From: Gryllotalpicola protaetiae
Lineage (GTDB): Bacteria; Actinomycetota; Actinomycetes; Actinomycetales; Microbacteriaceae
Assembly: GCF_003627055.1 (NCBI RefSeq)
Contig: NZ_CP032624.1
Span: 2,046,001-2,110,000, forward strand
Reading direction: 5' to 3'
DNA length: 64,000 bases
Numbering within the stretch: position 1 is the first letter of the stretch; each line of letters starts with the position of its first letter. The translations under genes were made by a program, and so were the position numbers. Below, one piece after another: positions 33,496-62,328 of the stretch. The notes beneath the pieces were generated by a model, which saw only the letters and a program-made list of their open reading frames with translations, made no database searches and was not told the origin of the DNA.

Positions 33496-33569
33496 GGCTG
33501 AGTAGCTCAGTTGGTGAGAGCGCACGACTCATAATCGTGAGGTCGCGGGTTCGAGTCCCGCCTCAGCTA
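33496..33569 (+). tRNA. tRNA-Met (CAT), elongator type
   Basis: 74 nt plus an encoded CCA (33570-33572). Acceptor GGCTGAG / CTCAGCT (one G-U pair), anticodon stem CACGA/TCGTG with loop CTCATAA giving CAT, T arm GGTTCGAGTCC. The acceptor has no C1-A72 mismatch, so it is not an initiator. A CAT anticodon could also be tRNA-Ile2; the elongator is the likelier call. Its 3-prime end is the probable insertion site of the element to its right. Confidence 0.93.
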
Positions 33570-33572
33570 CCA
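33545..33572 (+). other. Candidate left attachment site (attL) of the conjugative element
   Basis: The 3-prime part of tRNA-Met (T arm to CCA) is a typical target of tyrosine recombinases, and an integrase gene points toward it from 1.3 kb away. No second copy of this sequence is found in the window, so the core is inferred only. Confidence 0.5.
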
Positions 33573-34893: not shown

Positions 34894-36033
34894 TCACGCG
34901 GACCTGACGACGTTGTCGAGCGCTGCGGCGGCGCGAATTCCGCCGGTGTTCTTGGCCATGTAAACGTCCTGCGTGAGCGATGGGTTTGCGTGACCGAGGT
35001 ATTCGGCGATCTCGCGCGCGGTCATGCCGGCCTGGTCGAGCGCGGTTGCGACGGTCTTGCGGAAACTGTGGCTCGTGACCCCGGGGAAGCCGAGCCGAGT
35101 GAGTTCTTGCGACCAGCTGCGAGTGGAGTTCCGCGGATCGCGGATGTGCCCGCGGATGGTCGGGAAGACGAGGTCGTGTGTGTTGGCGACCCTGAACCTT
35201 TCCTCCCTTTGACGCAGCAGCTCCACGAGCGTCTGCGGGATGGCGATCGTGCGGGCGCCGGCGGCGGTCTTCGGGTGGTCTTGCAGAAGTACGCCCTTGC
35301 CATGGGCGCGGACGACGTTCGCGTTGACCGTCAGCAAGCCGCGATCGAGATCAACCGACGACCATCGCACCGCGAGTGCTTCCCCAAGTCGGCATCCGGT
35401 GCTCGCGAGGAAAAGGATCACATCGGCTTGATCGAGCTCGCGGAGGCGCTCGTCGTGCGTAACCGCCGAGAGAAGTTCCGCCAGTTGATCGAGCGGCACC
35501 GCGGTCGCTCCGCCGCGCTTCCGTGTGATCCGGTCCACCTCGCGAATGGGATTGACGCGAACGAGGTCGGAACGTGCGGCGAGCCCCATCATCCCCGAGA
35601 GCACCGCACGGCAGGCTTTCGCGGCCCCGGGGCCGTTGTTGGCGCTAACGCCGGCGATGAAGCGCCCCAGTCGGTCGGTGCTGGCTTCGGAGACGGCGAG
35701 CGAGCCGATGCCAGGTCGAATCAGGTGCTCGATGGTCTGTCTGTAGGTGTCAACGGTGCGAGGGGCACGGTCCGCCTTGGTTGCCAAGAACGCGTCAGCG
35801 AGCACTGACAAAGTAGTCTCACGCTTCAGCGGGGCGGTCGGAGCCGACTCGACGACGGCGAGGGCTCGCTGAAGTGCGTTCCGGGCCTTCGCCCTGCTGG
35901 GTCCGAACCGCTCGATCTGCCGCAGGACGCCATCGTCGAAGCGGTAGCGCGTTCTGGCGCGCCATTTGGCGCCGTCCAGCTGCTGGACGCGGATCGCGCC
36001 GTAACTGCCAATCGGGGTTCGCGGTCGTACCAC
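34894..36033 (-). CDS. int: Tyrosine-recombinase integrase
   Basis: 379 residues. An AP2-like/arm-binding N-terminus is followed by a SAM-like core-binding domain (about 65-165). The catalytic domain shows Arg in ASTGCRLGEALAVRW (about 214), His-x-x-Arg in SHSFRKTVATAL (about 321), EYLGHANPS, and the Tyr nucleophile in TQDVYMA (about 354). All catalytic residues are present, so it should be active. GTG start. It reads toward the tRNA-Met end, which it probably uses as attB. The repressor gene lies six bases upstream on the same strand. Confidence 0.93.
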   Translation of the reverse strand: MVRPRTPIGSYGAIRVQQLDGAKWRARTRYRFDDGVLRQIERFGPSRAKARNALQRALAVVESAPTAPLKRETTLSVLADAFLATKADRAPRTVDTYRQTIEHLIRPGIGSLAVSEASTDRLGRFIAGVSANNGPGAAKACRAVLSGMMGLAARSDLVRVNPIREVDRITRKRGGATAVPLDQLAELLSAVTHDERLRELDQADVILFLASTGCRLGEALAVRWSSVDLDRGLLTVNANVVRAHGKGVLLQDHPKTAAGARTIAIPQTLVELLRQREERFRVANTHDLVFPTIRGHIRDPRNSTRSWSQELTRLGFPGVTSHSFRKTVATALDQAGMTAREIAEYLGHANPSLTQDVYMAKNTGGIRAAAALDNVVRSA

Positions 36034-44369: not shown

Positions 44370-46175
44370 ATGAACAGCAAGCAGTCATCCGGGTGGGCGA
44401 CGATCGTCGTCTACGGCATCTTCGCGGTCGTCGTCGCAGGCGGCCTCGCAACGCTGATCGGAGCGGCGGCCATCCGCGTCATCTGCGGCACGGGTGGCCG
44501 CCCGGCCAGCATCTTCGCCGGCCTGCAGCTCGCAATCAGCGGCGACGCGGGCGGATACGAAGGCGCGAACGGATGCCACGTGCCGGTCACGCCGGTCAGG
44601 GGTCTCGACCTCCTCGCGCTCGTGATCATCATCGCGGCCGCCGGCGCCGCAGCGGCTTGGTGGTTCCGCTTCCGACAGTCCGATCGGCACTTCATCCACG
44701 AACTGCGCCTCCGCGACGGGCTCGCCAAAGGCGGCGAGATCCGGCGGCACGCGTCGGCCCGCACCGCGCTGCGCCGGGCGAAGACACTTCGCCCGTCGCT
44801 CGAGAACCCGACGCCGGCATCCGTCGGCTGGAAAGTCGGCCGCGCGCACGGGCACGACGTCTACGTCTCGATCGAAGACTCCGTGGTCGTCGAAGGAGCC
44901 CCGCGCTCGGGCAAGGGCTACCGGTTCATCATCAACGCGATCCTCGACTGGGACGGGCCGCTGATCACCACCTCGACCCGCAACGACAACCTCTCGGCCA
45001 CGATGCGCGCCCGCGCGCGCATGGGCGAGGTGACGGTCTTCGACCCGCAAGAACTGTCGGGCGTCCGCTCGTCCCTTCGGATCTCGCCGGTGACCGGGTG
45101 CGAAGACCCGCTCGTGGCCGATCAACGCGGCCACGCGATCGTGGCGGGCACCGCACTCGGGGGCTCCAAGACGAACCAGGAGTGGGCGCACGTCGCGTCC
45201 TCTGTGCTCTCCCGACTGCTGCACGCCGCCGCCGTCTCGGGCCGTGGCGCCGACGCGCTCGCCCGCTGGGGCTCAAACCCGCGCCTCGCGCTCGAGGCCG
45301 TCAGCGTCCTGTCGAGCCAGGGCGCACCCGGGTGGGCCGAGGACCTCGACGCGATCATCAACGGCGACGAGAAGCTCCTCGCCTCCTCGTGGTTCGGCGT
45401 CTCGGGCGCCGTCCGGCCGCTGGCGATCCCGGCGATCCGCAGAGCCATGACCCCGGGCCACGGCGAGCACTTCGACGCCGACCAATTCCTTACGGCACCC
45501 AACAGCCTCTACCTCGTCGGCACGGGAGCGGGCGCCGGCTCGGTCGGTGGCTTCCTCGGCGCGGTGCTCGATGACGTAGTCGAGACCGCGCGCCGCAAGG
45601 CGCTTGCCTCACCGGGCTCACGCCTCGATCTGCCGCTCGCGCTGATCCTCGATGAGATTGCCAACATGTTCTCCTGGCCGGCGCTGCCACGCATCATGGC
45701 CGACGGCGGCGGCCAGGGGATCTCCACCGTGGTTGTTCTGCAGGCCCTCTCGCAGGCCGAGACCGCGTGGTCGAAGGCCGAAGCCGACACCATCTGGTCC
45801 GCCGCTACCGCGAAGCTCCTGCTCGGTGGCGCCAGCGATGTCGACCACCTCCGCGATGTGGCATCACTTCTCGGCGCGCGCCGCGTCCGCGATACCGCCC
45901 ACTCGTACAACTCCTCCGGCTCGTCGACGAACGTGCGCAACGAGAAGGTCCCAGTGATGACGGTGGATGAGATCAGACGGATGCCGGAAACCGTCGGCCT
46001 CCTCGCGTACCGCACGCGCCGCGGCATCGTGCTCGACCTGCGCGGCTGGACCGACCGACGCGACGCCGCCGACATCTCCTCCTCCAAGAAGGCGACCGAA
46101 CTCGAGCAGCAGGCCGTGTTCGCCGAGCAATACCGCGCGGCGGTCGACCGCAGGCGCACGGCGGAGCGCGGCTGA
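44370..46175 (+). CDS. TraG/VirD4-type coupling ATPase
   Basis: 601 residues. Two N-terminal membrane helices (about 10-30 and 78-98) anchor the motor. Walker A is VVEGAPRSGKGYRF (about 174-187) and Walker B LALILDEIANMFSWPALP (about 423-440); VVVLQALSQAETAWSK and ATAKLLLGGASDVDHL follow, all typical of type IV coupling proteins. It brings the relaxase-DNA complex to the channel. It overlaps the HNH gene by one base (TGATG). Confidence 0.92.
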   Translation: MNSKQSSGWATIVVYGIFAVVVAGGLATLIGAAAIRVICGTGGRPASIFAGLQLAISGDAGGYEGANGCHVPVTPVRGLDLLALVIIIAAAGAAAAWWFRFRQSDRHFIHELRLRDGLAKGGEIRRHASARTALRRAKTLRPSLENPTPASVGWKVGRAHGHDVYVSIEDSVVVEGAPRSGKGYRFIINAILDWDGPLITTSTRNDNLSATMRARARMGEVTVFDPQELSGVRSSLRISPVTGCEDPLVADQRGHAIVAGTALGGSKTNQEWAHVASSVLSRLLHAAAVSGRGADALARWGSNPRLALEAVSVLSSQGAPGWAEDLDAIINGDEKLLASSWFGVSGAVRPLAIPAIRRAMTPGHGEHFDADQFLTAPNSLYLVGTGAGAGSVGGFLGAVLDDVVETARRKALASPGSRLDLPLALILDEIANMFSWPALPRIMADGGGQGISTVVVLQALSQAETAWSKAEADTIWSAATAKLLLGGASDVDHLRDVASLLGARRVRDTAHSYNSSGSSTNVRNEKVPVMTVDEIRRMPETVGLLAYRTRRGIVLDLRGWTDRRDAADISSSKKATELEQQAVFAEQYRAAVDRRRTAERG

Positions 46176-47155: not shown

Positions 47156-47596
47156 ATGAGCACACGCGTACCCATCACCATCGAGGGCAATCTCGTCGCC
47201 GATCCGACGTTCGCAGAGTCCACGAACGGCACCAAGCTCGCCAAGTTCACCGTGGCGGTCACCGACCGCAAGCTCGAGGACGGGAAGTGGGTCGACGGCG
47301 AGACCCAGTTCCACCGCGTCACGGCATTCGGGCGCCTGGCCGAGAACGTCCGGGCGAGCCTCACAAAGGGCGACAGCGTCCTCGTCAGCGGCAACCTCGA
47401 GTTCCGCCACTGGGTCGACGAGCACACCGGCGAGGCTCGCTCGTCGACCGAAGTGGTCGCTGACGCCGTGGGTCCGTCGCTGCGCTACAACCGCGTCGAG
47501 GTCGCCCGCCGGCCCAGCATCGACGGCGCTGCGCCGGCGGGACCCGTGCTCCAGCCGCCGCCGTCGCCCGGCGCATCCGCCTCGGTGGCGCAGTAG
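47156..47596 (+). CDS. ssb: Element-encoded single-stranded DNA-binding protein
   Basis: 146 residues with one OB fold: ITIEGNLVADPTF, KLAKFTVAVTDRK, FHRVTAFGRLAENV and GDSVLVSGNLEFRHW. The tail is Pro/Ala/Ser-rich and lacks the acidic DDDIPF-like tip of chromosomal SSB. It would coat the transferred strand. AGAAGGGAAAG precedes the ATG after a 100-base gap. Confidence 0.92.
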   Translation: MSTRVPITIEGNLVADPTFAESTNGTKLAKFTVAVTDRKLEDGKWVDGETQFHRVTAFGRLAENVRASLTKGDSVLVSGNLEFRHWVDEHTGEARSSTEVVADAVGPSLRYNRVEVARRPSIDGAAPAGPVLQPPPSPGASASVAQ

Positions 47597-48466: not shown

Positions 48467-50779
48467 TCACAAGAGGTCAAAGTGGGCGAAAAGCACATCG
48501 ATGCGGGCAGCGTCCGACTGCTCCGTACGGGTCATCGGGTGCGGCGGGATGTAGGTGTCCTCGATGTCTGGCCGACGGAGGATCTCATCGTGCGCCTCCG
48601 CCCAGAGTGAACCCGAGCAGTCGACCCCGAGATCCTCGGCGAGCGTCTCCAACTCGGCGAAGACGTCCTCGTCCAGAATCTCATCTGGCACCATTAGCTT
48701 GTAGTTCACCCACGTTTCGAACAGCGCAGCGATCGTTTCCCGCGGTGTCGTGATGAGTCCTGGCTCGTCCTCAAGGCAGTCGCCGATGGAGCGCCAGTCG
48801 TCTGCTGAATCGGCCGCGTAGACAAGCGCATCGGCGGCAGCGGCGATCTCACGGTCACGCTCGGGGACTTCGGCCAAGAGTTCGAGAGCCACTTCCATGT
48901 CGCCGACCGTTCCGCTCTGCCACCGCTTTACGGCCGCCTGCCACATCTGCTTCAACCACGTGTCGTAGGTCGGATTCGGAGTACTGAGTTCCCGGCCGAC
49001 CATGACGGCGAACTGAACTCGCACCTCCGGGCTGATGCGCCAGAAGTGGACTGCGCGTCGGTTCGGCCGGAAGCGCTCACCATCGGCTGGGTGAATCGAG
49101 AAGCAGCGCACGATGGCCGCGCACAGCGCGGATTCGAGTGCTACGCGTTGCGCCGGCTCCGCGGCGAGCATGACCGCCGCGCGAAGCCAGTCGAGCTGTT
49201 CGAAGTATGTTGTCTCGTTAATCAAGAGCAACGCGTCGCGAGGGTTCTGGCGCAGCCACGAGGCAGCGAAGTCCGCCACGGATGGGTTGATCAATGAGAC
49301 GGACACCGCCGGGGCGTACTCGTCCTTGTGGGATTCGAGGAACGCATCATCGAGAACTCGCAGCGCAGAATGCAGCGCTCCGTGTGCCAGTTCTCGACCT
49401 CGGCTCGTCGCTAGACGCTGCAGCGCGGGCTCGAGTTCGGACGGGTGCACGGAGTAAGGAAAGGAGCTGACGAGGAGGACGATGTCCCGGCAGTCGGCGT
49501 CAAGTTCGTGTTCGAACGCGTGAGCCCAGATCCTGTCCGGGTGGTCAAGCAGCTCTATTGCCCGGTCCAGAGTCGTCTCTTGTTCAGCGGACTCCTCTGT
49601 CGCGCGGGCGATGTGCTCGATGAGGCGTGGGGTGTAGTTGGGGTGATCGACGATGCGAAGGTACGCGGAGTCGGCGACAAGAGACGTCAACTCCCCTCGT
49701 GCGCGCAAAGGCGAGAACCAGAGGTGGTTGTAGAGGATTTGTGCTCGTTCGTAGCGCGTATAAGCGCTGAGTTCGAGCAGCAGCGTGTGAATCGGGACTT
49801 CCGCGGCGTCGAGTGCCTCATACCAGGAGAGGGCCTGGTTCAGGATGTGCTCGCGAGTCGTAAGGATGAACAACGAGTTCGCCGAGGCGCGGCAGGAGCG
49901 CATGAAGGAGGCCAGGCGCCTGTCTTCGTTTTTCGTCAGGCGCGAGTGAAGGAAGTTGGAGCCGAGGAAGTCGTCGTAGACGAAGATCTGCTTGCGCGTC
50001 GTGTCGAGGACCTCGAATCCCTCACTCACGTCGGAGGACAGTTCCACGGGCTCGTAGCCGGCGGCGACGGCGTCGGCCACAAGCATTCGCGCGAGCGTGG
50101 TCTTTCCGATTCCCGGCGGCCCGGAGATAACGAGGACGCGTTCTGTGTTCAGACGGTCGTGGGCCGTGTTGAAGGCGCCGGTGTCTACGAGGAGCGGCAG
50201 GTCTCGTCGAATGTCCTCCAGCAGCGCCCGGCTGCGCTGCCACGTTCCGGAGTGGATGACTTGTTCCAACTGCGCCCGACTGCTGAGCCAGAGCTTGAGA
50301 TGCGCGCGCTCCACCTCGGGGTGCTGATTCAGCAGGAGCTCCAGGTCGTCTTCCCCGAGAATCTGGTCGTCGCGCGCGATCCACGGGGAGAGAGTGGCAC
50401 GCAAGGTGTGCTTGTTGCCGGCGGTGAGGCGGCGCGACGTCACCAATCTGTAGCTATCCGGACTAGGGAGTAGCCGCGCGACCTTGGCCGCCTCGGATCT
50501 CGCGGCGGCGTTCAGCTGCGGAAACGTGCTGTCTGCCATCTGCTTGCACTGGACAATGTGGAGACGCTCATCCGCGTCCAATCGGCGGAGATCGACACCG
50601 AGGTCAGGGCCGCGGGCGAAGACCTCATACTGATGGCCCGACTCGGCGCGCAGAAGATCGGCAACCAGCAGCTCGAAGTCGTGATCAGAAAGATTGCGAT
50701 AGTTTCTCAAGACTGTCCCCGCCGCCGAAGTACCGATACAGGCACGATCCTTCCGCACCAGTTCACTCGCGCTCGGCAT
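48467..50779 (-). CDS. Mrr-type nuclease fused to STAND NTPase (predicted anti-phage defence)
   Basis: 770 residues. N-terminal PD-(D/E)xK restriction-endonuclease domain (about 25-120): LSDHDFELLVADLL, GPDLGVDL with Asp 63, and VQCKQ with Lys 79, as in Mrr. A central P-loop NTPase of the STAND class follows: Walker A ISGPPGIGKTTLARML (about 216) and Walker B QIFVYDDFLGS (about 265), then LTTREHIL (sensor) and a winged-helix-like part. The helical C-terminal third (about 400-770) would sense the trigger. This is the nuclease-nSTAND3 layout predicted in defence. ATG at 50779 immediately follows an in-frame TAG; a TTG about 23 codons on is an alternative. Low-GC cargo. Confidence 0.85.
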   Translation of the reverse strand: MPSASELVRKDRACIGTSAAGTVLRNYRNLSDHDFELLVADLLRAESGHQYEVFARGPDLGVDLRRLDADERLHIVQCKQMADSTFPQLNAAARSEAAKVARLLPSPDSYRLVTSRRLTAGNKHTLRATLSPWIARDDQILGEDDLELLLNQHPEVERAHLKLWLSSRAQLEQVIHSGTWQRSRALLEDIRRDLPLLVDTGAFNTAHDRLNTERVLVISGPPGIGKTTLARMLVADAVAAGYEPVELSSDVSEGFEVLDTTRKQIFVYDDFLGSNFLHSRLTKNEDRRLASFMRSCRASANSLFILTTREHILNQALSWYEALDAAEVPIHTLLLELSAYTRYERAQILYNHLWFSPLRARGELTSLVADSAYLRIVDHPNYTPRLIEHIARATEESAEQETTLDRAIELLDHPDRIWAHAFEHELDADCRDIVLLVSSFPYSVHPSELEPALQRLATSRGRELAHGALHSALRVLDDAFLESHKDEYAPAVSVSLINPSVADFAASWLRQNPRDALLLINETTYFEQLDWLRAAVMLAAEPAQRVALESALCAAIVRCFSIHPADGERFRPNRRAVHFWRISPEVRVQFAVMVGRELSTPNPTYDTWLKQMWQAAVKRWQSGTVGDMEVALELLAEVPERDREIAAAADALVYAADSADDWRSIGDCLEDEPGLITTPRETIAALFETWVNYKLMVPDEILDEDVFAELETLAEDLGVDCSGSLWAEAHDEILRRPDIEDTYIPPHPMTRTEQSDAARIDVLFAHFDLL

Positions 50780-51915: not shown

Positions 51916-52021
51916 TTGCCTCGTTGCTGCGTGAAACCGGGGAGTGGCCCACTTCCCGCGCGTGAGCCCCACAGCACCGAATCATCTACCCAGGAATTTG
52001 GCGTCAGGAGGGGCATCCCAT

Positions 52022-53320
52022 ATGGGCATATGGGGAATGGTCGACAGCGAGGCCACCCGTCAGCCGTATTGTTTCGACGTGAGCTTTACAGCACTGCATC
52101 GCGCACTGGGGCTGCCCCCTGGGCCGCTAACCAATGACGTCCTTGATGCCGCCGTATCGGCCCAGGTCGTTGAAACTCACGACCTGGACTGGAAGTCCGA
52201 ACTCCCGCCCGTCAGCGGGATCTCGCAGACGGACGTGCCCAAGGACGTGGCAGCCATGGCCAACAGCGGCGGCGGCGTGATCATCTACGGGGTTCGCGAG
52301 AGTCAGAAAGCGGCGACTGAACGCATCGACGCCGGCGAGTTCACCGAAATCCATGAGCGGGCGTATCGGAGCGCAGCAGTGACTGCGATCTCCCCACCGA
52401 TCTTCGGGCTCGAGATCCACCGCCTCGGCGAAGACCCACACGCGGTCGCTGTCGTTGTTCCGCCCAGCATCGACGGTCCTCATCTGATCTACAAGAACGA
52501 TCTCTTCGGAGCTCCGATCCGCAACGACGCCGACACCGCTTGGATGAAGGAGCGACAGATCGAGGCCATGTATCGGGCGCGCTTCGACGAGAGACTGCAC
52601 GTCACCCAGGCCACTGACTCGCTATACGCCGAAGCGGCTGGCTATCACGACACCAGTGCGCACGCGCTATTCGTTGCCGTCGCCACCCCGCGCATCCCCA
52701 ACGTTTCCCACCGCCTGTCACGCGACGACGCACGGCGGATCTATCGCGACGCCCAGAAGATCGCCCTCACCTACTCGCGCAACGTCGGAGTACATCCGCT
52801 CGAAAAGATCGAGATTCTCAACCCGCGTACCGGCTTGCGGAGGTGGGTCGCAGACACCGCTCCGACCGGAGAAGCCAACTGGCAGGAAGCACGAGCAAGC
52901 GTCCACCACGACGGATCGGTGAGCCTCGTCGCCGCAGTCGGCGGTCACCGCAAGACCGCAACCGAATACTTTGGCGGGCACGAGGTCGAAGCGCGGGGCA
53001 TCGAATGCGCGGTCGCGGACTTCTCGGCTCTCGTGCGTGCCGCCTCATCGGTATCGGACCTCAGCGAGTACGACGTGCGGGTCGGGATCGAATGGTCAGG
53101 CATTGGCGACCTCCGGTTCCTCGAGAATGACGCACAGGGAAACGCCTTTGATAGCACGGCGAGAGCGCTCCGCATCTTTTCGCCCGTGCGCACGACTCTG
53201 ATCGCCTCGGAATCAGCTCGCGACTTTCACGGGCAGGTTTACCAGCTCGCTGAAGATTGCGTGAATCAAGCCGGCATCTCCCACCTGCATGTCCTTGACC
53301 CTGTCCCGGAAGAGGAGTGA
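52022..53320 (+). CDS. Schlafen/AlbA_2-domain protein, defence-associated candidate
   Basis: 432 residues. The AlbA_2 (divergent AAA-4/Schlafen core) region spans about 45-190: VETHDLDWKSELPP with the acidic-x-Lys motif, KDVAAMANSGGGVIIYGVRE, and HLIYKNDLFGAPIRNDADTAWM. The C-terminal 240 residues are not recognised. AGGAGGGG nine bases before the ATG at 52022 fixes the start; upstream in-frame sequence is ignored. Schlafen-type domains can be nucleic-acid-binding or RNA-cleaving. Tail-to-tail with another protein of this type at 53579. Function is inferred from the domain and location only. Confidence 0.75.
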   Translation: MGIWGMVDSEATRQPYCFDVSFTALHRALGLPPGPLTNDVLDAAVSAQVVETHDLDWKSELPPVSGISQTDVPKDVAAMANSGGGVIIYGVRESQKAATERIDAGEFTEIHERAYRSAAVTAISPPIFGLEIHRLGEDPHAVAVVVPPSIDGPHLIYKNDLFGAPIRNDADTAWMKERQIEAMYRARFDERLHVTQATDSLYAEAAGYHDTSAHALFVAVATPRIPNVSHRLSRDDARRIYRDAQKIALTYSRNVGVHPLEKIEILNPRTGLRRWVADTAPTGEANWQEARASVHHDGSVSLVAAVGGHRKTATEYFGGHEVEARGIECAVADFSALVRAASSVSDLSEYDVRVGIEWSGIGDLRFLENDAQGNAFDSTARALRIFSPVRTTLIASESARDFHGQVYQLAEDCVNQAGISHLHVLDPVPEEE

Positions 53321-55223: not shown

Positions 55224-55681
55224 ATGCGTACCGTGCAAACTTGGCTTGTGGATCTCGAGCCCTTCCGGCCAGCGCCATGCGGCGCATTTGACGAAGGCGC
55301 AGCTGACATCTGTCGAGAGTGGATGGTCTAGCTCGGCGCCGCTGACGTCGTCCAAGCGACGGGTAACGCGCCGCTGTGATGCGACCTGTACGGCGACGGC
55401 TACGTCGCACGGGTCGACAACCGTCGCGGGAACACCGACGTCGACCTCGTCGAACGTGCCGCATTGGCTGCGGCCGCTGACGGCCGCACGCCCCTTTTTT
55501 CTTCATGCGTGGAGGGATCCGTCCAATAGCCCAGCAGCGCGCCGACCAGCTCGGCGTCGCGCTCTTTCGGTGCGGCTCCCACGACGGCACTCTCGACGGC
55601 GCCAACGCGCTCGGACGGGAACTTCGCGCGACCGGGTTGGCGCCTGGTCCCGGCATCGGTCGCGCGTCTATCGAAGGCTGA
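55224..55681 (+). pseudogene. Decayed Mrr-like restriction endonuclease gene
   Basis: A coding-like frame from ATG 55224 (MRTVQTWLVDLEPF...) is broken by in-frame TAG at 55329-55331 and TGA at 55377-55379. It then shifts frame at a run of six T (55495-55500) and continues to TGA at 55679-55681. Read through, it gives AADICREWMV, LGAADVVQATG, CDLYGDGYVARVDNRRGNTD and VDLVERAALAAAADGRTPL, then GGIRPIAQQRADQLGVALFR. This pattern of catalytic strand, helix and final lfft-GG-A-AD-gVALF strand is that of Mrr-type PD-(D/E)xK enzymes. It converges on the relaxase gene, overlapping its end by 14 bases. Confidence 0.6.
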
Positions 55682-58406
55682 GGCCGCCATTACCTCTTGT
55701 CGGAAGAACGGTCGGCTCGCTTCCCTGATGCGCCCTCGCCGCACGGCTGAGCTCGTTCTGCGCCGCCGCACGCGATTTATCCATCGTCTCCTCGATGACT
55801 TGTCGCTGCATCATCTCAGCGAGCTGCGCGCGGGCAGACGCCCCGCTCGGCGCCACTAGGACGACTGTGTTGTCGCGCTTGCCTCGGGTGAGTCCGACGT
55901 ATAGGCCGGCTGCATCGACGCCAGGACCTACGAGGGACCGGTCCGTCGTCTCGCCCTGGATGCCGTGCGCCGTGGTCGCGTAGCCGAGGTGAAGGTGGGC
56001 CGCCGCGTAGTCGTGTGTGATCTTGCGCGGTTCGAGTGAGTCCGAGGTGGACGCCAGTGTCACGTGGTCGCGACTGATTGCCTTGACCACCCAGTTCTGG
56101 CGGTTCTGAACATCGGACGTGCGGTCGTTGCGACGGGTCTGGACCACGTCGCCAATGAAGATGGCCTGCCCGCCCTGGCCGGCCGTCGAATGCTCGGCGC
56201 GAAGCTCGCCCGTCTCGAGACGGCGCATCTGAATCGCTTCGCTGATGACTTGCGCTTCGCTGTGCGTCGCGGCGACCAGAGCGAGGCTCTCGCCGCGGCG
56301 GCGACTTTCGAACCAGGCATCCGTCATCGCTTGCTGCGCTTCAACGTCGTTGTTGGCCAGCTTCACGTGCCCGGTTGTGACGAGCTCCTTCGCGACCGCC
56401 GCGGCTTCGTCGGCGCCGCGCGGGTCGCGCAGCCGCATGGTGAGATCCGCCCACGTGGGGTCGCTGTAGCGGTGGATCGTCGACAGCTCGACCTGGTTGG
56501 CCGCGCGGCTCCAGAAGAGCGCCATCGCTCCGGAGTGCCCGACGGGCAGCGCCTGAAGTTCGTCGCCGACGACGGCAACTCCGGCACCGGTTTGCTCGAG
56601 GACGTCGACGAGAGCGGATGCCGCCTCGAGATCGAGCATTCCGGCTTCATCGACGACGATGCGGTCGGTCGGGCGAATCGCGATCGTCGGGCCGCCGTAG
56701 ACCGCGCCCGACTGCGGGTCGGTGTCGCCGGGCTGCAGGCGCGTCCACTTGGTCGCACCTGCCTCATCGGCCGCCCAGCGCCACCCGTAGTCGTGCAGCA
56801 GCTGGTGCAGCGACGACGAGGCGCTGCCAGTCTCGCGCCCGGCGACCGCGGCGGCCTTCTTCGTCGGCGCCACGATGATCGTATTGCGCCCCTGGCGGCG
56901 CAGCGCAGCGATCGCCACCTTGAGCATCGTCGTCTTGCCGGTGCCCGCCGGCCCGGAGATCGCGACGCTCCGCGCCGTGCCCGCGATCGCTGACGCGGCG
57001 TCGGCTTGGTTCAGGTCGAGGGCGCGAGCGGGGTCGAGCACGCCGGCGATCAGCCGGATTGATTCGAGGTTGAGCGGGATGCCCGGAGTCGACAGCGCCT
57101 CGACGCGGCGCGCGAGCGTCGCCTTGAGGACCGCAGTGTTGGTCCCCATGAGTCGCTTGACGTGGGCGGGAATGTCGGGCTCGCTCAGCAGGGTGACGGT
57201 GTGCGTCTTCACCGCGCTCCTGACGACCGCGCTGAGCAGCGCGTCGAGCTCGACCCGGTCGGCGACGGTGCCGGATGCCGCCACCGCACGGATGGCGCCA
57301 GCGCGGACATCCATGATGCTGAAGCGTCCGCCTGTGCCCGTCGAGCGAGCGTCGGCGTCGACGATCGCCTTCGCGGCAAGCAGGTCGAGATCGAGGTCGG
57401 CGATAGCCAGCTGACGGATGCCGGCAGCAGGCCGCGCCTTGTTGAGCCCACGGTCTGCTTCGGTGAGTTCGCGGCGGATGCGGGCGGCCCATTCGTCTTC
57501 GTCGAGCCGGCCCGGCTTGTCGGGGCGGCGAGCGGCCCAAGCCCACCGGTCGATCTGGTCGAGCACGGTTCGTGATGGCTCTTGCCCGGGGTGGCGCTCT
57601 TTCCACCAACGGGTTCGCTCGGCCTTGTTCGCTTCGATCTGCGCGGCGCGCTTCGAGAGCGGACGCACAAGGTGCGCCAGCTGCTCGATCTCGCCGTCAT
57701 CGTTGAGTGTGAAGCCTTTGGCGGCGAGGGCCGTGAGCCAGGCGGGGTCGGTGCGGGCGGCGAGGTCGCCTTCGGCGTTGATGACGTTCTGGAAGCGCAG
57801 CGCCACTCGAGTGTCGAGGTTGGACCACCTGCCGTCTTCGCCCTGGACTTTGACGTTGAGCCACAGGTGGCGGTGCTTATGCGGGTCGAGCGACCGTGAG
57901 CGCTCGTGCTTGAGCTCGACGACTTCGATGCGTGCGAGGTCTTCGCGGATTGCGCCGGCGTGACCGCGCCGGGAGTTGAGTTCGACCTGCCACAGCTTGA
58001 TGATCCGGTCGCGGAGGCGGTCTTGCAGATCCTCGTAGGCGGCGGCGAGTTCCCGGTCGAGCATCGCGGCGATGGAGAACGACTTCGGCGCGTTGATCGT
58101 GGCGTCGAGGATCAGGTCGGCTGTTGGCGATTCAAAGCGCGTGCCTCGCGGTTCTCCTGTCAACGGGTCGTTCCCGTCGATCCAATCGAGCAGCTGCGGG
58201 CGGGTGAGAAGATCGTCACGGATCGTGCCGTGCTCGACGACGTACCGGGTCATCACGGCATCGGCATAGTCCGCTGCGGCGAGCACGCCTTCAGCTGTGC
58301 GCGCAGTCAGGGTGGAGTCGCACACGCCCCCGAAGGCATAGGCGATCGCCTGCCTCACGCCTTGGGCGTGCTCGCCGCGTTTCCATCTGGCTATTCCGCC
58401 TCTCAC
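55668..58406 (-). CDS. traA: MobF-family conjugative relaxase-helicase (TraA-like)
   Basis: 912 residues. An N-terminal relaxase starts with RGGIARW; tyrosines lie near DYADAVMTRYVVEHG and the metal triad in DPHKHRHLWLNV (HxHxH, about 172-176). A helicase of superfamily 1 follows: Walker A AISGPAGTGKTTMLK (about 482-496), IVVDEAGMLDLEAA (about 587), VVGDELQALPVG, and ATTAHGIQGETTDRSL with YVGLTRGKRD. It nicks at oriT and unwinds the transferred strand. GTG at 58406 is chosen because RGG is the usual MobF N-terminus; GTG five codons upstream is possible. Confidence 0.92.
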   Translation of the reverse strand: MRGGIARWKRGEHAQGVRQAIAYAFGGVCDSTLTARTAEGVLAAADYADAVMTRYVVEHGTIRDDLLTRPQLLDWIDGNDPLTGEPRGTRFESPTADLILDATINAPKSFSIAAMLDRELAAAYEDLQDRLRDRIIKLWQVELNSRRGHAGAIREDLARIEVVELKHERSRSLDPHKHRHLWLNVKVQGEDGRWSNLDTRVALRFQNVINAEGDLAARTDPAWLTALAAKGFTLNDDGEIEQLAHLVRPLSKRAAQIEANKAERTRWWKERHPGQEPSRTVLDQIDRWAWAARRPDKPGRLDEDEWAARIRRELTEADRGLNKARPAAGIRQLAIADLDLDLLAAKAIVDADARSTGTGGRFSIMDVRAGAIRAVAASGTVADRVELDALLSAVVRSAVKTHTVTLLSEPDIPAHVKRLMGTNTAVLKATLARRVEALSTPGIPLNLESIRLIAGVLDPARALDLNQADAASAIAGTARSVAISGPAGTGKTTMLKVAIAALRRQGRNTIIVAPTKKAAAVAGRETGSASSSLHQLLHDYGWRWAADEAGATKWTRLQPGDTDPQSGAVYGGPTIAIRPTDRIVVDEAGMLDLEAASALVDVLEQTGAGVAVVGDELQALPVGHSGAMALFWSRAANQVELSTIHRYSDPTWADLTMRLRDPRGADEAAAVAKELVTTGHVKLANNDVEAQQAMTDAWFESRRRGESLALVAATHSEAQVISEAIQMRRLETGELRAEHSTAGQGGQAIFIGDVVQTRRNDRTSDVQNRQNWVVKAISRDHVTLASTSDSLEPRKITHDYAAAHLHLGYATTAHGIQGETTDRSLVGPGVDAAGLYVGLTRGKRDNTVVLVAPSGASARAQLAEMMQRQVIEETMDKSRAAAQNELSRAARAHQGSEPTVLPTRGNGGLSLR

Positions 58407-58791
58407 ACTTATTACTTGCACCAGTCGATGCGGTTCCGGCGCGCAAACGGCGCGCACTTCCACCCCGTGGTGCCTGCGTGCATTGTGCTGATCGCAGGTG
58501 GCAATGCCACGTCGTGGATTGACACAGCGATCCCGCGCTTGCCGCATGCAGGGTTGACCTGGGTCCTGCCTGATTTAGGCATTGACTTCGTCGCTCGCGT
58601 AAGCATCCACCGGCGACGCGATCCGCGCCCCGGCGAGGGCGCCACCGCGACCTCGATCGCCCGCAATGACGTTGGTGCGTGCGAGACTGCGCGCGTGATG
58701 AATCGTCAGATTCAGTATCGGTCGGAGCGCCCTCGCGGCGCGGGTATGTGTAAAGGTGCAATCGTGAGCGCTCGGGAAGCAGTTCGAATCG
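58407..58791. other. Region upstream of the relaxase gene, candidate oriT
   Basis: 385 bases between divergent relaxase and TPR-PIN genes. It contains a perfect inverted repeat GTGGCA-A-TGCCAC at 58498-58510 and GC-rich repeats GGCGCGCAAACGGCGCGC near 58438-58455. MobF elements often carry oriT beside the relaxase gene. No gene is seen. No nic consensus was recognised. Confidence 0.4.
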
Positions 58792-61700
58792 ATGTCAGAC
58801 CCATTTAGCGGAGCCATGATGGACACGCTGCTTGGCAAGCTCTTGGAGCTAGTTGGTCGGCTGCTCCGCAAACTCTCGTTCACCTGGAGAGTCGCGCACC
58901 AGGTACAAGTGACCGCGGCCGAAGATGGATACGCAGTGTCGGCAACGGCGCTGCGAGCTGTCTTGCGCGAGCGAGCGGTAAGGGCGGCGGTCAAGCGGCG
59001 GAAACCAGGCGACATCGTCCGGGCCAAGCACCGTTTGGCAACCGTGAGAGCTATCCACGCGGATGGCTCTCGGCTCTCGAGCGACAAGCTTTTCGAACTG
59101 AGCCGCACGGCGTATCTGGGTGCATCTGAACAAGCTGAGCGAGACCTCGGCATTCGAGACGAGATGACGAGCGGTTTCGCCGCGCTCACTCTGGATGGCG
59201 GGGCGCGCGAGCCGTTGTGGCAAGCCAACTTGGCCAGAATCTCACCGCCTCTCGCAGCGGACCTTTCGGTGCTACGCCGCGTCCTCGGCGATCCGGTCGA
59301 CAAGCTTCTCCACCTGCTTGTCAACTCCCCGAATCGAAGCGAGCAACTATCCGCATGGACTGCTGCCCGACCCGAGTGGTTACCATTCGAGGGATCTCTG
59401 CTCGGATGGCTTGGCGAACTGTCAGTGGAGATCGGCGCAGCGGCTGCGGCGCGGCACTGGTTTCAGGCCGCGGTCTCGGCTGGTGCGGCGCCGACAGAAT
59501 ATTGGCGCGCGCGACTCCTGTTGGTCGAGTCCTCCAAGACCGACCAGGAGAAGCTCGCCTCGGTCGCCGATATTGTGACGCATCCACTTTTGGCGGCGCT
59601 CACGACCGGCCGACTCGAAGACCGAATTGAATACCTGCGAGAATGGGACACAAGATCTCAGATGCAGGCGAGCCTGCGGGCAGCCTTGATCGTCGATTGC
59701 TTGGCGGATCTGCGCAACTTCGATGAGGCGATCCATTACGGCACCACGGCGTATCGCGAGGAATCCTTCGGTGGCGCGGGTATCAATGCCGTTGAGGCAT
59801 ACATCCGCCGTAGCGGATACCATCACGGATCGCATGCGCCGGACCTAACTTCGGCACTGTCTCTCGCCCTCGAGATTCGGAATGCGCGCCGACGCTGGGG
59901 ACTCACAGCTGGCACTGCTGTCGCGAAGGCTGTGAAGGCCGCGGTAATGCTGGCCGACATCGAGCTGGCCTTTTCCCTCGCGCGACCGCCCGAGGCGACT
60001 CCGGAGGAGGCTATGCATCCGGACGTTCGACGCGAAGCGATTGTAGCGATGGGTCTGCTCGGGAACGTACCCGGTGCGAAGGACCTGGTCGACGAGAGCA
60101 CGCCTGAGTGGATTCGCCTACAAGTTGCGTCGTTCGAGGCAGAAGCATTGAACGACCAGGACGGTGCTAATGAACTGCTCGCCCGTGCGATAGACGCTGT
60201 AGACGACTGGAGCCAGAAGGCTCAGCTTGCCTTCCGTTTGGCGTCACGGGGCGTCGTGCATCCCTTTATCGACGAGCTTCGCGCTGACAACCCTGAAACC
60301 GCTGAAGAGCTTGAGATTGCCGCGGGGCTCTATGCGGGAACGCCAGGGGCCGAAGCGCGGGCCAAAGCACGCGCCATCGAAAGACCTACGATCGCCTTCT
60401 CGCTCATCACCTTCTTTGAAAAGTCAGGCCGACGGCGGGACGTCATATTTGTTGCCGAACAAGCGGCTGCGGCATGGGTGGATCCGGAACTGTGGCTGAA
60501 GGCTGCTCATACACACTTACTTGAGCGCGAGAGTCGCTTGGCCATCGACCGTGCAACTAAGGCACTCGATGCGGGAGGCGCGTCGTGGGGTAACAGGGCC
60601 GGCGCTTATCGAGTCCAGGTGGAGGCGGCAAGCTCGATAGGAGACTGGACTACCGCGCTTGCCAGCGCGCAAATGCTCCTTCGCCTAGATCCGTCATCTA
60701 CCTCGGCACAGTGGGCGGTGGTGCGGATCAGACGCAATTCCGGCGACGTTGACCAGGCCTATCTCGACTGGAAGGTCGGAAAGCCGGGCCCGAGGCCCCG
60801 GATCCCGGACGAGGCGATGACGTGGCTTGAGATGTTTCGCCTCCACGGCAGCGAAATGGCGACGCTCCGCGAGTTCTTCGAGGTCGCGAACGGCTTCGCT
60901 GAGAACTCTGACGTGCGCAACATGGCACTCGGCGCGTTACTGTCTGCTCCGATCACGGAGCCCGTGGAGGAGCTGAACTTCAATGCGTTGCTACAGCGGT
61001 TTGAGCGCGACTATCCGGGGCAGAGTCCGGTACGCGCGCTAACTATCGAAGAGGGTGCGGACGCCACCGCGATCATTGCGGCCCTCGACGAGGCCGTCGG
61101 TACGCGCGAGAAGACTCTCAAACCTCTCGACGAAGGCATCACAAAAGGTACTCTCCCCATCGGCTTTGCGGCCCGCCCGGCCGGCAAACACGTAGCGGAG
61201 CTTCTCAATATTCGACATAAGTCCCCCCGATACGCCGGTTCTTTGAGGCCTGACGATGAGTTTCAAGCCATCGCTTTGGCGCTAAGTCTCGGCGCCGTCG
61301 TGGACGTGACAGCACTCTTCACGCTGGCACTGCTCCGGGAGGCTAACGCCGATTTGCTTATTGCGAAGTTGCCTGAGTTGACTACCGCCTCGGAACAGAT
61401 GCTCGACGCTGTGGCGGCACGGGAGGCATTCAACCGCGCCCCAGGGGGCACCTTCTTCTCGAGTACGGCGGATCGTGCCGCGACCTTTGCTCTAGCTGAC
61501 CCAATCGAGCATGACCAGCAACGGAGGACGGCCGTCCGCCTCGTCAGCCTCTTCCTGCGATCCAGCCGGCAGTCCGGTTGGCCTTACGTCACTAGTTTCG
61601 CCGAGCATATTGGTGGCGGCGCGGACGGGATATGGCTGGCATCCCTGGATCTCGCCGTAAAGACTGACCGCCCACTGTGGTGCGACGACGCCGCGACTCG

Positions 61701-62328
61701 TGCGGTTGCTCGCGAAATGGGCGCCGACACATTTGGGACGCCGGCGCTCGTTGAGTACCTGCGCCGCGATGGCACCATTCCGTCCGGGGAGGCCAATCAG
61801 CTTGATGCTGAACTGATCCATAACTGGACGATCGGCGTCGCGTATCGAAATGCCGTCATTGACGAGGTAAGTCAGATCGATCAGATGGCGCCCGAGGGTC
61901 TCGCAGCATGGATTCTCCACGGCGGCCCGGACAATGCGCTTGAGAAAGTTGACTTCGTCGTGCACGCGATGGGCGCAGTCGTCGCGCTACCGGATCAGCT
62001 CGCAGGCTGGACCGCAATCGCCTTTAAATACCTCGCGGATGTGGCTGGAAGCCCATCGGCCGTGCTCGACAATCACACCAACCTGCTGCATCGCCTTCTG
62101 CTCCAGCCCTGGCTGGGGCCATCTTCCCTTGTCTTCGTCGTCGATGCGGGGCATCGCGAAGCGGGGGCTTTATGGGGTGAGGCATTTGAACGGGGATTTC
62201 GGCTGATGTTTTCCCAGATCGCCCAACAGATCGGACACGAATCTGCAGCGAATTACGCGCTCGGCCTGGTTGCGCAACTTGAGCCTCGTGACCGCCAGTT
62301 GGCGCTTGCCGTCATTCTCAGTCCCTAG
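58792..62328 (+). CDS. Very large TPR-rich protein with C-terminal PIN-like nuclease region
   Basis: 1178 residues. About 30 N-terminal residues are amphipathic and basic. Residues about 170-760 form helical TPR-like repeats (for example HWFQAAVSAGAAPTEYW, FDEAIHYGTTAY, DWTTALASAQMLLRLDP). A segment KGTLPIGFAARPAGKHVAEL (about 783) leads to a PIN-like region (about 810-1000): Asp in GAVVDVTALF (about 838), then DRPLWCDDAATRAVAREMG (about 960) and TFGTPALVEYL. TPR-PIN proteins are predicted RNA-cutting toxins of conflict systems. No P-loop is seen. ATG at 58792 has a weak ribosome site; 58816 is possible. More A/T-rich than the relaxase gene. Confidence 0.75.
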   Translation: MSDPFSGAMMDTLLGKLLELVGRLLRKLSFTWRVAHQVQVTAAEDGYAVSATALRAVLRERAVRAAVKRRKPGDIVRAKHRLATVRAIHADGSRLSSDKLFELSRTAYLGASEQAERDLGIRDEMTSGFAALTLDGGAREPLWQANLARISPPLAADLSVLRRVLGDPVDKLLHLLVNSPNRSEQLSAWTAARPEWLPFEGSLLGWLGELSVEIGAAAAARHWFQAAVSAGAAPTEYWRARLLLVESSKTDQEKLASVADIVTHPLLAALTTGRLEDRIEYLREWDTRSQMQASLRAALIVDCLADLRNFDEAIHYGTTAYREESFGGAGINAVEAYIRRSGYHHGSHAPDLTSALSLALEIRNARRRWGLTAGTAVAKAVKAAVMLADIELAFSLARPPEATPEEAMHPDVRREAIVAMGLLGNVPGAKDLVDESTPEWIRLQVASFEAEALNDQDGANELLARAIDAVDDWSQKAQLAFRLASRGVVHPFIDELRADNPETAEELEIAAGLYAGTPGAEARAKARAIERPTIAFSLITFFEKSGRRRDVIFVAEQAAAAWVDPELWLKAAHTHLLERESRLAIDRATKALDAGGASWGNRAGAYRVQVEAASSIGDWTTALASAQMLLRLDPSSTSAQWAVVRIRRNSGDVDQAYLDWKVGKPGPRPRIPDEAMTWLEMFRLHGSEMATLREFFEVANGFAENSDVRNMALGALLSAPITEPVEELNFNALLQRFERDYPGQSPVRALTIEEGADATAIIAALDEAVGTREKTLKPLDEGITKGTLPIGFAARPAGKHVAELLNIRHKSPRYAGSLRPDDEFQAIALALSLGAVVDVTALFTLALLREANADLLIAKLPELTTASEQMLDAVAAREAFNRAPGGTFFSSTADRAATFALADPIEHDQQRRTAVRLVSLFLRSSRQSGWPYVTSFAEHIGGGADGIWLASLDLAVKTDRPLWCDDAATRAVAREMGADTFGTPALVEYLRRDGTIPSGEANQLDAELIHNWTIGVAYRNAVIDEVSQIDQMAPEGLAAWILHGGPDNALEKVDFVVHAMGAVVALPDQLAGWTAIAFKYLADVAGSPSAVLDNHTNLLHRLLLQPWLGPSSLVFVVDAGHREAGALWGEAFERGFRLMFSQIAQQIGHESAANYALGLVAQLEPRDRQLALAVILSP

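What the first reader, a model, noticed from the sequence alone, without database searches (positions are those of the whole stretch)
48467..50779. Mrr-STAND protein as predicted anti-phage effector on the element
D63 and Q-x-K79 of an Mrr-type nuclease, Walker A/B of a STAND NTPase and a helical sensor are all present in one 770-aa chain. Related nuclease-STAND proteins (Avs) detect phage proteins and cut DNA. This shorter nSTAND3-type form is, to my knowledge, poorly characterised.
Basis: partly seen in the sequence, partly recalled or inferred. Interest (0 to 1): 0.62.

Follow-up and report, generated by a model that had tools for sequence, protein, structure and literature searches.

The report
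Compact nuclease-STAND immune sensor on ICE
This gene most likely encodes a one-protein bacterial immune sensor, a DNA-cutting domain wired to a molecular switch and a fast-changing detector, carried by a mobile element; the family is already in a catalogue of candidate defence genes but seems untested.

Summary
Window 48467-50779 (-) encodes an Mrr-type PD-(D/E)xK nuclease (D63, Q77-x-K79), an nSTAND3 NTPase (Walker A 220-228, D269/D270, R309) and a helical C-terminal domain. The start is probably TTG at 50710 (747 aa). The family is not unnamed: it is PADLOC candidate PDC-S73 (5e-128; all 41 relatives aligned in A2 match too), found across many phyla. The catalytic residues are identical in all 42 intact proteins aligned. 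The C-terminal domain keeps its size but diverges beyond detection between most clades, as expected of a sensor. Avs4 is the first solved match for the whole model (Foldseek) and, tied with AF1548, for the nuclease alone (VIA-align); no Avs-named PADLOC model matches. Relatives sit beside defence genes: 129 PADLOC families in 122 flanking proteins against 4 in 122 controls. Here it sits on a ~58 kb element in a tRNA-Met gene, in a slot between ssb and relaxase that holds other defence candidates in two of three sister elements. Most likely an Avs-like sensor cutting DNA on detecting an invader. Ordinary in kind, uncharacterised in detail.

The parts
48467..50779 (-).
   Evidence: PADLOC PDC-S73 5.3e-128
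48467..50710 (-). probable true coding region from TTG codon 24 (747 aa)
   Evidence: annotated starts of 8 of 10 plasmid relatives at query residues 22-24; residues 1-21 pLDDT below 50; GGGGA 5 nt upstream of the TTG; inference
50270..50710 (-). nuclease domain, residues 24-170; PD-(D/E)xK, Mrr clade; E36, D41, D59, D63, Q77, K79 invariant in A2
   Evidence: Mrr_cat 1.5e-5; residues 24-178 folded alone, pLDDT 92.9; Avs4 residues 3-185 Z 10.9 over 143 residues
49715..50188 (-). nSTAND3 NTPase core, residues 198-355; Walker A 220-228, Walker B 264-271, conserved R309
   Evidence: PF20720 2.4e-50; conservation
49220..49714 (-). STAND arm / winged-helix-like region, residues 356-520, with conserved H379, P384-R385, N498-P499-S500
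   Evidence: linked between all six clades compared; 'winged helix' is inferred from STAND architecture
48470..49219 (-). C-terminal helical domain, residues 521-770: presumed sensor, hypervariable, near-constant length
   Evidence: secondary structure; mean pairwise identity 0.13 and length 234-294
48473..48529 (-). C-terminal tip helix, residues 751-769, with the recurrent acidic + [LIMV][FY]..[LIMFY] pattern, behind a low-confidence linker (739-751)
   Evidence: pattern in 27 of 42 proteins of A2 and 19 of 33 others against 6-9% background; model
33530..33570 (+). left attachment repeat of the host element (3' half of tRNA-Met, 41 bp); the right copy lies at G000:C1:2137886-2137926, outside the window
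34894..36033 (-). tyrosine integrase of the element
   Evidence: PF00589 3.4e-20
44370..46175 (+). VirD4/TraG-type coupling protein (element backbone)
   Evidence: PF12696 8.8e-29; kept in three sister elements
47156..47596 (+). single-strand DNA-binding protein: left edge of the cargo slot
   Evidence: PF00436 1.6e-27
55668..58547 (-). TrwC/MobF-type relaxase: right edge of the cargo slot
   Evidence: PF08751 1.6e-29; 36 of 299 family genomes, own included, have a match at E<=1e-100

Best explanation
A single-gene, Avs-like innate immune sensor. At rest the STAND NTPase holds the protein inactive. When the C-terminal helical domain binds an invader molecule (most likely a phage protein), the NTPase loads or exchanges nucleotide and the protein oligomerises. 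That brings the N-terminal Mrr-type nuclease domains together, and they cut DNA with Mg2+ at the D63/Q77-x-K79 site, destroying phage and probably host DNA and stopping the infection. The element carries the gene as defence cargo. Shown: domain anatomy, invariant active-site and switch residues in intact relatives, Avs4 heading the Foldseek list for the whole model, hypervariable C-terminus, defence-gene neighbourhoods of relatives, position in a slot that varies between sister elements. Inferred: trigger, resting state, oligomerisation, DNA cleavage, phage protection.
For: Nuclease and NTPase residues identical in 42 of 42 proteins of A2. Foldseek against the PDB ranks Avs4 bound to phage portal first (8dgf_B, 1.9e-8); SAMD9, EfAvs5, the NRC4 resistosome, an AVAST5 filament, NOD2 and Apaf-1 fill the rest of its top eight rows. 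The nuclease folded alone is headed in VIA-align by Avs4 residues 3-185 (Z 10.9, rmsd 4.1, 143 aligned), tied with AF1548 (10.1), then Cdn1, MspJI, Card1. Mean pairwise identity is 0.13 in the C-terminal domain against 0.40 (nuclease) and 0.37 (NTPase). PADLOC at 1e-25: 129 families in 122 flanking proteins of 16 relatives against 4 in 122 control proteins from the same contigs. Two of three syntenic sister elements carry other defence candidates in the same slot. In Avs5, another nSTAND3 protein, Walker A, Walker B and a conserved arginine are reported as needed for immunity, the arginine change having a partial effect (PMC12931631, passages).
Against: No PADLOC model named Avs is among the 12 matches at E<=1 (the naming is recalled). 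The whole-chain TM-score is low (0.32 against Avs4, rmsd 16), so the agreement lies in domains and their order. For the nuclease alone Foldseek puts EcoO109I first and Avs4 fourth (E 7.1e-3). The C-terminal domain is about 250 aa and no TPR family is among the 25 of 32 Pfam rows shown. VIA-align of the whole model lists AAA+ ATPases and plant NLRs together and no Avs entry in its 50 rows. One relative left out of A2, L059 on a short low-coverage contig, does not keep the nuclease motif, and six others have broken frames. No activity has been measured. The PADLOC counts are of families, many of them variants of one another, not of proteins, and only 25 of the 129 were shown.
Confidence: 0.75

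Rival explanations
1. It acts mainly against other mobile DNA (incoming plasmids or rival integrative elements), not phage: the sensor detects a conjugation or replication protein or foreign DNA, and the nuclease removes the competitor.
For: Carried on a conjugative-type element between ssb and relaxase. 47 of 72,556 plasmid records hold relatives, 28 of them predicted conjugative. Two of the fetched plasmid copies lie within 4 kb of repABC.
Against: On genome contigs, relatives have neighbours that match Mokosh, SIR2 Argonaute-partner and AriA-like models. Carriage by mobile elements is normal for phage defence genes (recalled).
Confidence: 0.12
2. It is a modification-dependent (type IV) restriction enzyme: the C-terminus reads modified DNA and the NTPase is a motor, as in McrBC-type enzymes.
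For: Mrr_cat domain; MspJI (Z 8.6) and LlaBIII (Z 8.2) are among the fold matches of the nuclease; database annotators call many relatives 'restriction endonuclease'.
Against: The NTPase is of STAND type by Pfam and by Foldseek's top rows. No DNA-reading domain is among the 25 of 32 Pfam rows shown at E<=1. A hypervariable C-terminus is unusual for a base reader (inference).
Confidence: 0.07
3. It is a partner of a prokaryotic Argonaute, as the nuclease domain is shared with Argonaute-associated proteins.
For: PADLOC Argonaute-associated model PDLC02400 matches residues 26-181 at 1.6e-31, and 42 of 42 proteins of A2 match it at 1e-5. One relative (L057) has a SIR2 Argonaute-associated gene next door.
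Against: No Argonaute family was found among the 18 window proteins scanned with Pfam, which are not all of the window's genes. The most-hit pAgo model matched 2 of 122 flanking proteins at 1e-25, one of them the SIR2 protein itself.
Confidence: 0.03

Closest known systems
PADLOC phage defence candidate PDC-S73 (PDLC05079)
   Same: Sequence family of this protein: 5.3e-128 over residues 26-518; the query and all 41 relatives of A2 match.
   Different: The match stops at model position 496 of 752: the C-terminal domain of this protein falls outside it. A catalogue entry; no paper in the library names it.
Avs4 (AVAST type 4; PDB 8dgf)
   Same: First solved match of the whole model in Foldseek and head of the VIA-align list for the nuclease, tied with AF1548; same order of nuclease, STAND NTPase, helical C-terminus (that Avs4's nuclease is Mrr-type is recalled; portal binding is the entry's title).
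   Different: Avs4's chain has 1534 residues, twice as many, with a far larger sensor; 12% identity; no PADLOC model named Avs matches this protein at E<=1.
Avs5 (SIR2-nSTAND3; PMC12931631, PDB 9jap, 9nc9)
   Same: Same Pfam NTPase family, nSTAND3 (PF20720); variable helical C-terminus; a conserved arginine that may correspond to R309 here (the correspondence is inferred).
   Different: Effector is a SIR2 NADase, not a nuclease.
Mrr-type type IV restriction enzymes, MspJI, LlaBIII nuclease domain
   Same: PD-(D/E)xK nuclease of the Mrr kind.
   Different: No modified-base reading domain among the Pfam rows shown; a STAND switch instead.

Membership tests
PADLOC PDC-S73 | Match to model PDLC05079 | tested here: met
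   5.3e-128, residues 26-518 to model 5-496 of 752; genome search 8.2e-128
nSTAND3 NTPase (PF20720) | Pfam match above gathering score over the full model | tested here: met
   170.7 bits against cut-off 27.2, model 2-155 of 155
Mrr-type PD-(D/E)xK nuclease (PF04471) | Pfam match above gathering score | tested here: met
   25.5 bits against cut-off 21, covering only model 2-59 of 115; 41 of 42 proteins of A2 match at 0.001
Mrr-type PD-(D/E)xK nuclease (PF04471) | Conserved D and Q-x-K catalytic residues | tested here: met
   D63, Q77, K79 identical in 42 of 42 proteins of A2; catalysis itself not tested
Avs (AVAST) | N-terminal effector, central STAND NTPase, C-terminal helical domain | tested here: met
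Avs (AVAST) | Match to a catalogued Avs sequence model | tested here: not met
   12 PADLOC families at E<=1, none named Avs
Avs (AVAST) | C-terminal sensor much longer than 300 aa, as in Avs4 (sensor size recalled) | tested here: not met
   region from residue 521 on is 234-294 aa in the 42 proteins of A2
Avs (AVAST) | TPR-type repeats in the sensor | tested here: inconclusive
   no TPR family among the 25 of 32 Pfam rows shown; the domain is helical and too diverged to exclude them
Avs (AVAST) | Activated by phage terminase, portal or another phage protein | not testable with these tools
   needs infection or trigger assay
Type IV restriction (Mrr/McrBC) | Domain that reads modified DNA | tested here: inconclusive
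   none among the 25 of 32 Pfam rows shown; the diverged C-terminus could hide one
Argonaute-associated protein | Argonaute gene next door | tested here: not met
   none among the 18 window proteins scanned with Pfam, which include the main neighbours

The most novel reading that the evidence does not exclude
A compact, one-gene immune receptor family with a fixed-size (~250 aa) sensor that evolves so fast that it loses detectable similarity between most clades, yet often keeps a short acidic-[LIM]F..L tip at its very end, possibly a latch or docking point for the switch. Its trigger would differ from those of Avs1-Avs5, and conjugative elements would carry it in an exchangeable defence slot between ssb and relaxase.
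Probability: 0.4. Interest if true: 0.6.

Novelty: new member of a known kind. Interest (0 to 1): 0.42.

Why it matters
The characterised nuclease-STAND sensor closest to it, Avs4, is twice as long. A half-size form found from actinobacteria to an archaeon would be easier to express, solve and screen for triggers. Its conserved body with a hypervariable, constant-length C-terminal domain gives a natural set for asking how one immune receptor learns new targets, and the ssb-relaxase slot gives a place to look for further defence genes in actinobacterial elements.

Tried and rejected
Search of 396 genomes of the order with the protein gave only the own genome, but two candidates per genome were scored, so absence is not proven there or.

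PDB sequence searches gave P-loop ATPases in the rows shown, or one designed binder at E 0.11: no close relative with a solved structure was found by sequence. VIA-align of the whole model lists no Avs entry in its 50 rows; one domain fills that list, so the absence says little. No NCBIfam model reached its cut-off among the 25 of 34 rows shown.

SSB-tail mimicry: 4 of 42 proteins of A2 (L031, L041, L058, L060) end in PF, three of them in DDLPF, like the tip of SSB proteins (recalled). 0 of 33 further proteins do, so I dropped it as a family feature. The window protein does not end that way. Further relatives of L060 were sought in 149 genomes (5 with a match), in plasmids and in viral contigs (none).

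Rows dropped before counts: A2 holds the query, 39 of the 53 genome loci and 2 of the 13 viral loci. Left out are six loci whose best open frame covers under 0.9 of the match (L028, L052, L063, L070, L072, L073), and L033, L044, L046, L059, L061, L064, L067, L071 for an open end, near-identity to another row, a doubtful start or odd length. L059 does not keep the nuclease motif where the others have it. In the viral set L076 had a doubtful start, and L077-L086 match only stretches of 43-147 residues around the P-loop. L036 was cut by one codon and L005 at an internal Met. The record MT836015, labelled phage, encodes a protein whose start and end match the Pseudomonas plasmid relative L005; I do not count it as phage carriage.

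Promoter and terminator scan found none. The neighbouring AlbA_2 protein and a neighbour of the relative in L118 share nothing. The VirD4 protein has many distant plasmid relatives, none at 60% identity or more. Paper search for Avs4, portal or Mrr returned unrelated papers.

Full report
WHAT IS THERE. The minus-strand ORF at 48467-50779 is intact and has one match in its genome, itself. Pfam finds Mrr_cat at residues 28-83 (1.5e-5, above the cut-off) and nSTAND3 at 198-355 (2.4e-50). Eight of ten plasmid relatives have annotated starts at query residues 22-24 (one starts later, one earlier), residues 1-21 have pLDDT under 50, and a GGGGA stands 5 nt before a TTG at codon 24, so the protein probably starts at 50710 and has 747 residues.

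RELATIVES. PADLOC model PDC-S73 matches residues 26-518 at 5.3e-128. 47 of 72,556 plasmid records hold a relative, none of them matched over 80% of the query. Of the 42 proteins in A2 (query and 41 relatives), 42 match PDC-S73, 42 nSTAND3 and 41 Mrr_cat. The gene is patchy: PDC-S73 is found in 3 of 396 genomes of the phylum and 3 of 398 of the family, own genome included each time (two candidates scored per genome).

CONSERVATION. E36, D41, G57, D59, G61, D63, Q77, K79, G220, G223, G225, K226, D269, D270, R309, H379, P384 and R385 are identical in 42 of 42 proteins of A2, which holds intact proteins only; L059, left out, lacks the nuclease motif. Mean pairwise identity is 0.40 in the nuclease, 0.37 in the NTPase, 0.26 in residues 356-520 and 0.13 in the C-terminal domain. 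Against L108, the nearest relative that I found, the values are 0.60, 0.58, 0.43 and 0.26. Profile comparison between six clades gives probability 99.87 or more for the nuclease in 15 of 15 pairs and 98.7 or more for residues 356-520 in 15 of 15, but 90 or more for the C-terminal domain in only 2 of 15. A first run with two more actinobacterial members also gave 2 of 15, with the act1/mix match then spanning 245 columns instead of 91 and act1/alpha at 37%. The groups hold 3-8 sequences, so weak links can be missed. The length stays at 234-294 residues. Fast change at fixed size fits a sensor of one fold under pressure to change targets better than exchange of unrelated domains; this last step is inference.

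STRUCTURE. The AlphaFold2 model has mean pLDDT 84.4 and pTM 0.72. Foldseek's first match in the PDB is Avs4 bound to phage portal (8dgf_B, 1.9e-8); SAMD9, EfAvs5, the NRC4 resistosome (twice), an AVAST5 filament, NOD2 and Apaf-1 complete the first eight rows. TM-scores are low (0.32 for Avs4), so the match is in the domains. The nuclease folded alone (pLDDT 92.9) is headed in VIA-align by Avs4 residues 3-185 (Z 10.9, rmsd 4.1, 143 aligned), tied with AF1548 (10.1, 113 aligned), followed by Cdn1, MspJI and Card1; in Foldseek EcoO109I ranks first and Avs4 fourth. Whole-model VIA-align lists proteasomal and other AAA+ ATPases and plant NLRs at Z 12.9-14.5, with no Avs entry in the 50 rows.

NEIGHBOURHOODS. 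For 16 relatives I took the nearest flanking ORFs (up to four each side, simple ORF caller) and as many ORFs from a control stretch of the same contig at least 27 kb away: 122 against 122 proteins, 41,670 against 48,135 residues. At E<=1e-25 PADLOC matched 129 families in the flanks (25 shown), including MkoC, pAgo and SIR2-partner models, AriA, GajA/GajB, JetA/JetC, PbeA and PD-T7-5, and 4 families in the controls: C3a214 (GlgB) in two proteins, 2OG, DEDDh and mad3 in one each. Families overlap, so these are not counts of proteins. Of ten large flanking proteins that I picked, 6 matched at 1e-20 and 4 did not. A Pfam scan of the same 122 flanks also shows ordinary metabolic genes, so the loci are mixed.

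THE ELEMENT. The 3' half of a tRNA-Met gene (33530-33570) is repeated exactly, 41 bp, about 58.4 kb to the right. Inside are a tyrosine integrase, a VirD4-type coupling protein, ssb and a TrwC-type relaxase. 36 of 299 family genomes, own included, have a relaxase match at E<=1e-100. I fetched surroundings of 8. In 3 of 8 (L124, L125, L128) the order VirD4 - 133-aa protein (HNH below Pfam's cut-off) - ssb - relaxase is kept at 67-82% identity; in the other 5 only the relaxase was recognised in the stretch taken, with a distant integrase match in two. None of the 8 stretches (19.5 kb each) holds a match to the Mrr-STAND, AlbA_2 or PIN-TPR genes. Between ssb and relaxase, L125 has PDC-S32 (AbiJ_NTD4) and PDC-M09A, L128 has the kinase/TPR pair PDC-M71A/B and a ThiF protein, and L124 has a DUF4062 protein without PADLOC match. 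So the gene sits in a slot whose content differs between elements and holds catalogued defence candidates in 2 of these 3 sisters.

THE TIP. The last 24 residues carry an acidic residue followed by [LIMV][FY]..[LIMFY] in 27 of 42 proteins of A2 (where I noticed it; 26 of the 41 relatives and the query) and in 19 of 33 others not used to find it, against 9.4% and 6.5% of same-length stretches of the same domains. The 33 include near-copies (L005 and L013, for example) and frame-broken proteins, so they are not independent. In the model the tip is a helix behind a low-confidence linker. A recurrent tip on a hypervariable domain suggests a latch or docking site; untested.

MECHANISM. The most likely account is an Avs-like sensor: trigger binding by the C-terminus, NTP-driven oligomerisation, nuclease activation, DNA cleavage. 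In Avs5, an nSTAND3 protein with a SIR2 effector, Walker A, Walker B and a conserved arginine are reported as needed for immunity (the arginine change partly) and the C-terminal repeats for activation (PMC12931631, passages); the same paper says that the nuclease effectors of Avs1-Avs4 cleave phage and host genomes. PMC13141931 (passages) reports an Avs2 that makes cells refuse a plasmid bearing a phage portal gene. By analogy the same kind of action is expected here. By sequence it belongs to none of the Avs-named PADLOC models.

LITERATURE. Searches for nSTAND3 with Mrr (0 papers), PDC-S73, Avs4 with Mrr and STAND, nSTAND3 (two papers: Avs5 and an unrelated virus paper), STAND with Mrr, anti-phage and NTPase (three) and AVAST with Mrr (two) found no paper on this family. 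I saw passages of PMC10286901, PMC3710099 and PMC13141931, PMC7159879 (which names Mrr-like nucleases among effectors of other NTP-dependent conflict systems) and PMC8195603; of the 31 papers I opened only these last two and PMC3710099. [quoted passage not shown] The statement that this family is untested rests on those open-access searches only.

VERDICT. Real, well formed and probably functional; a further member of a catalogued candidate family, and in architecture a compact relative of Avs4. Interest moderate.

Noticed in passing
window 58792-62328 (+): 1178-aa protein with the PIN domain of the 'TPR-GreAB-C-PIN system' (PF20698, 1.6e-21, residues 836-975), just beyond the relaxase. PMC8195603 (passages) describes such proteins as a counter-invader system: a second putative conflict gene on the element.
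   Followed up: partly
window 51944-53320 (+): 458-aa protein with a Schlafen AlbA_2 domain (PF04326, 1.7e-7) in the same cargo slot as the Mrr-STAND gene.
   Followed up: partly
window 33530-33570 and genome C1:2137886-2137926: 41-bp direct repeat of the tRNA-Met 3' half marks a ~58.4 kb integrative element.
   Followed up: yes
L124, L125, L128: Sister elements keep VirD4, a 133-aa protein, ssb and relaxase but carry different genes between ssb and relaxase, including PDC-S32, PDC-M09A and PDC-M71A/B.
   Followed up: partly
last 24 residues of the protein (window 48470-48541) and of relatives: Acidic + [LIM]F..L tip recurs in an otherwise hardly alignable domain (27 of 42; 19 of 33).
   Followed up: partly
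L041, L058, L060, L031 (C-termini): Four of 42 proteins end in PF, three in DDLPF, resembling the tip of SSB proteins (recalled); not seen in 33 others.
   Followed up: partly
L004:950-5485: In a Prosthecochloris plasmid the relative lies next to annotated diversity-generating retroelement genes (Avd, reverse transcriptase, formylglycine-generating-enzyme-type proteins).
   Followed up: no
L017:11739-13115: A 7-cyano-7-deazaguanine synthase gene lies near a relative on an Agrobacterium plasmid, as in some defence operons (recalled).
   Followed up: no
L013 (MT836015, labelled Bacteriophage sp.): Relative with the same start and end as that of a Pseudomonas plasmid (L005); the record may be plasmid and not phage.
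   Followed up: partly
L028, L052, L063, L070, L072, L073; L007, L011; L107: Relatives with broken or split reading frames, as expected if the gene is costly to keep, or sequencing error.
   Followed up: no
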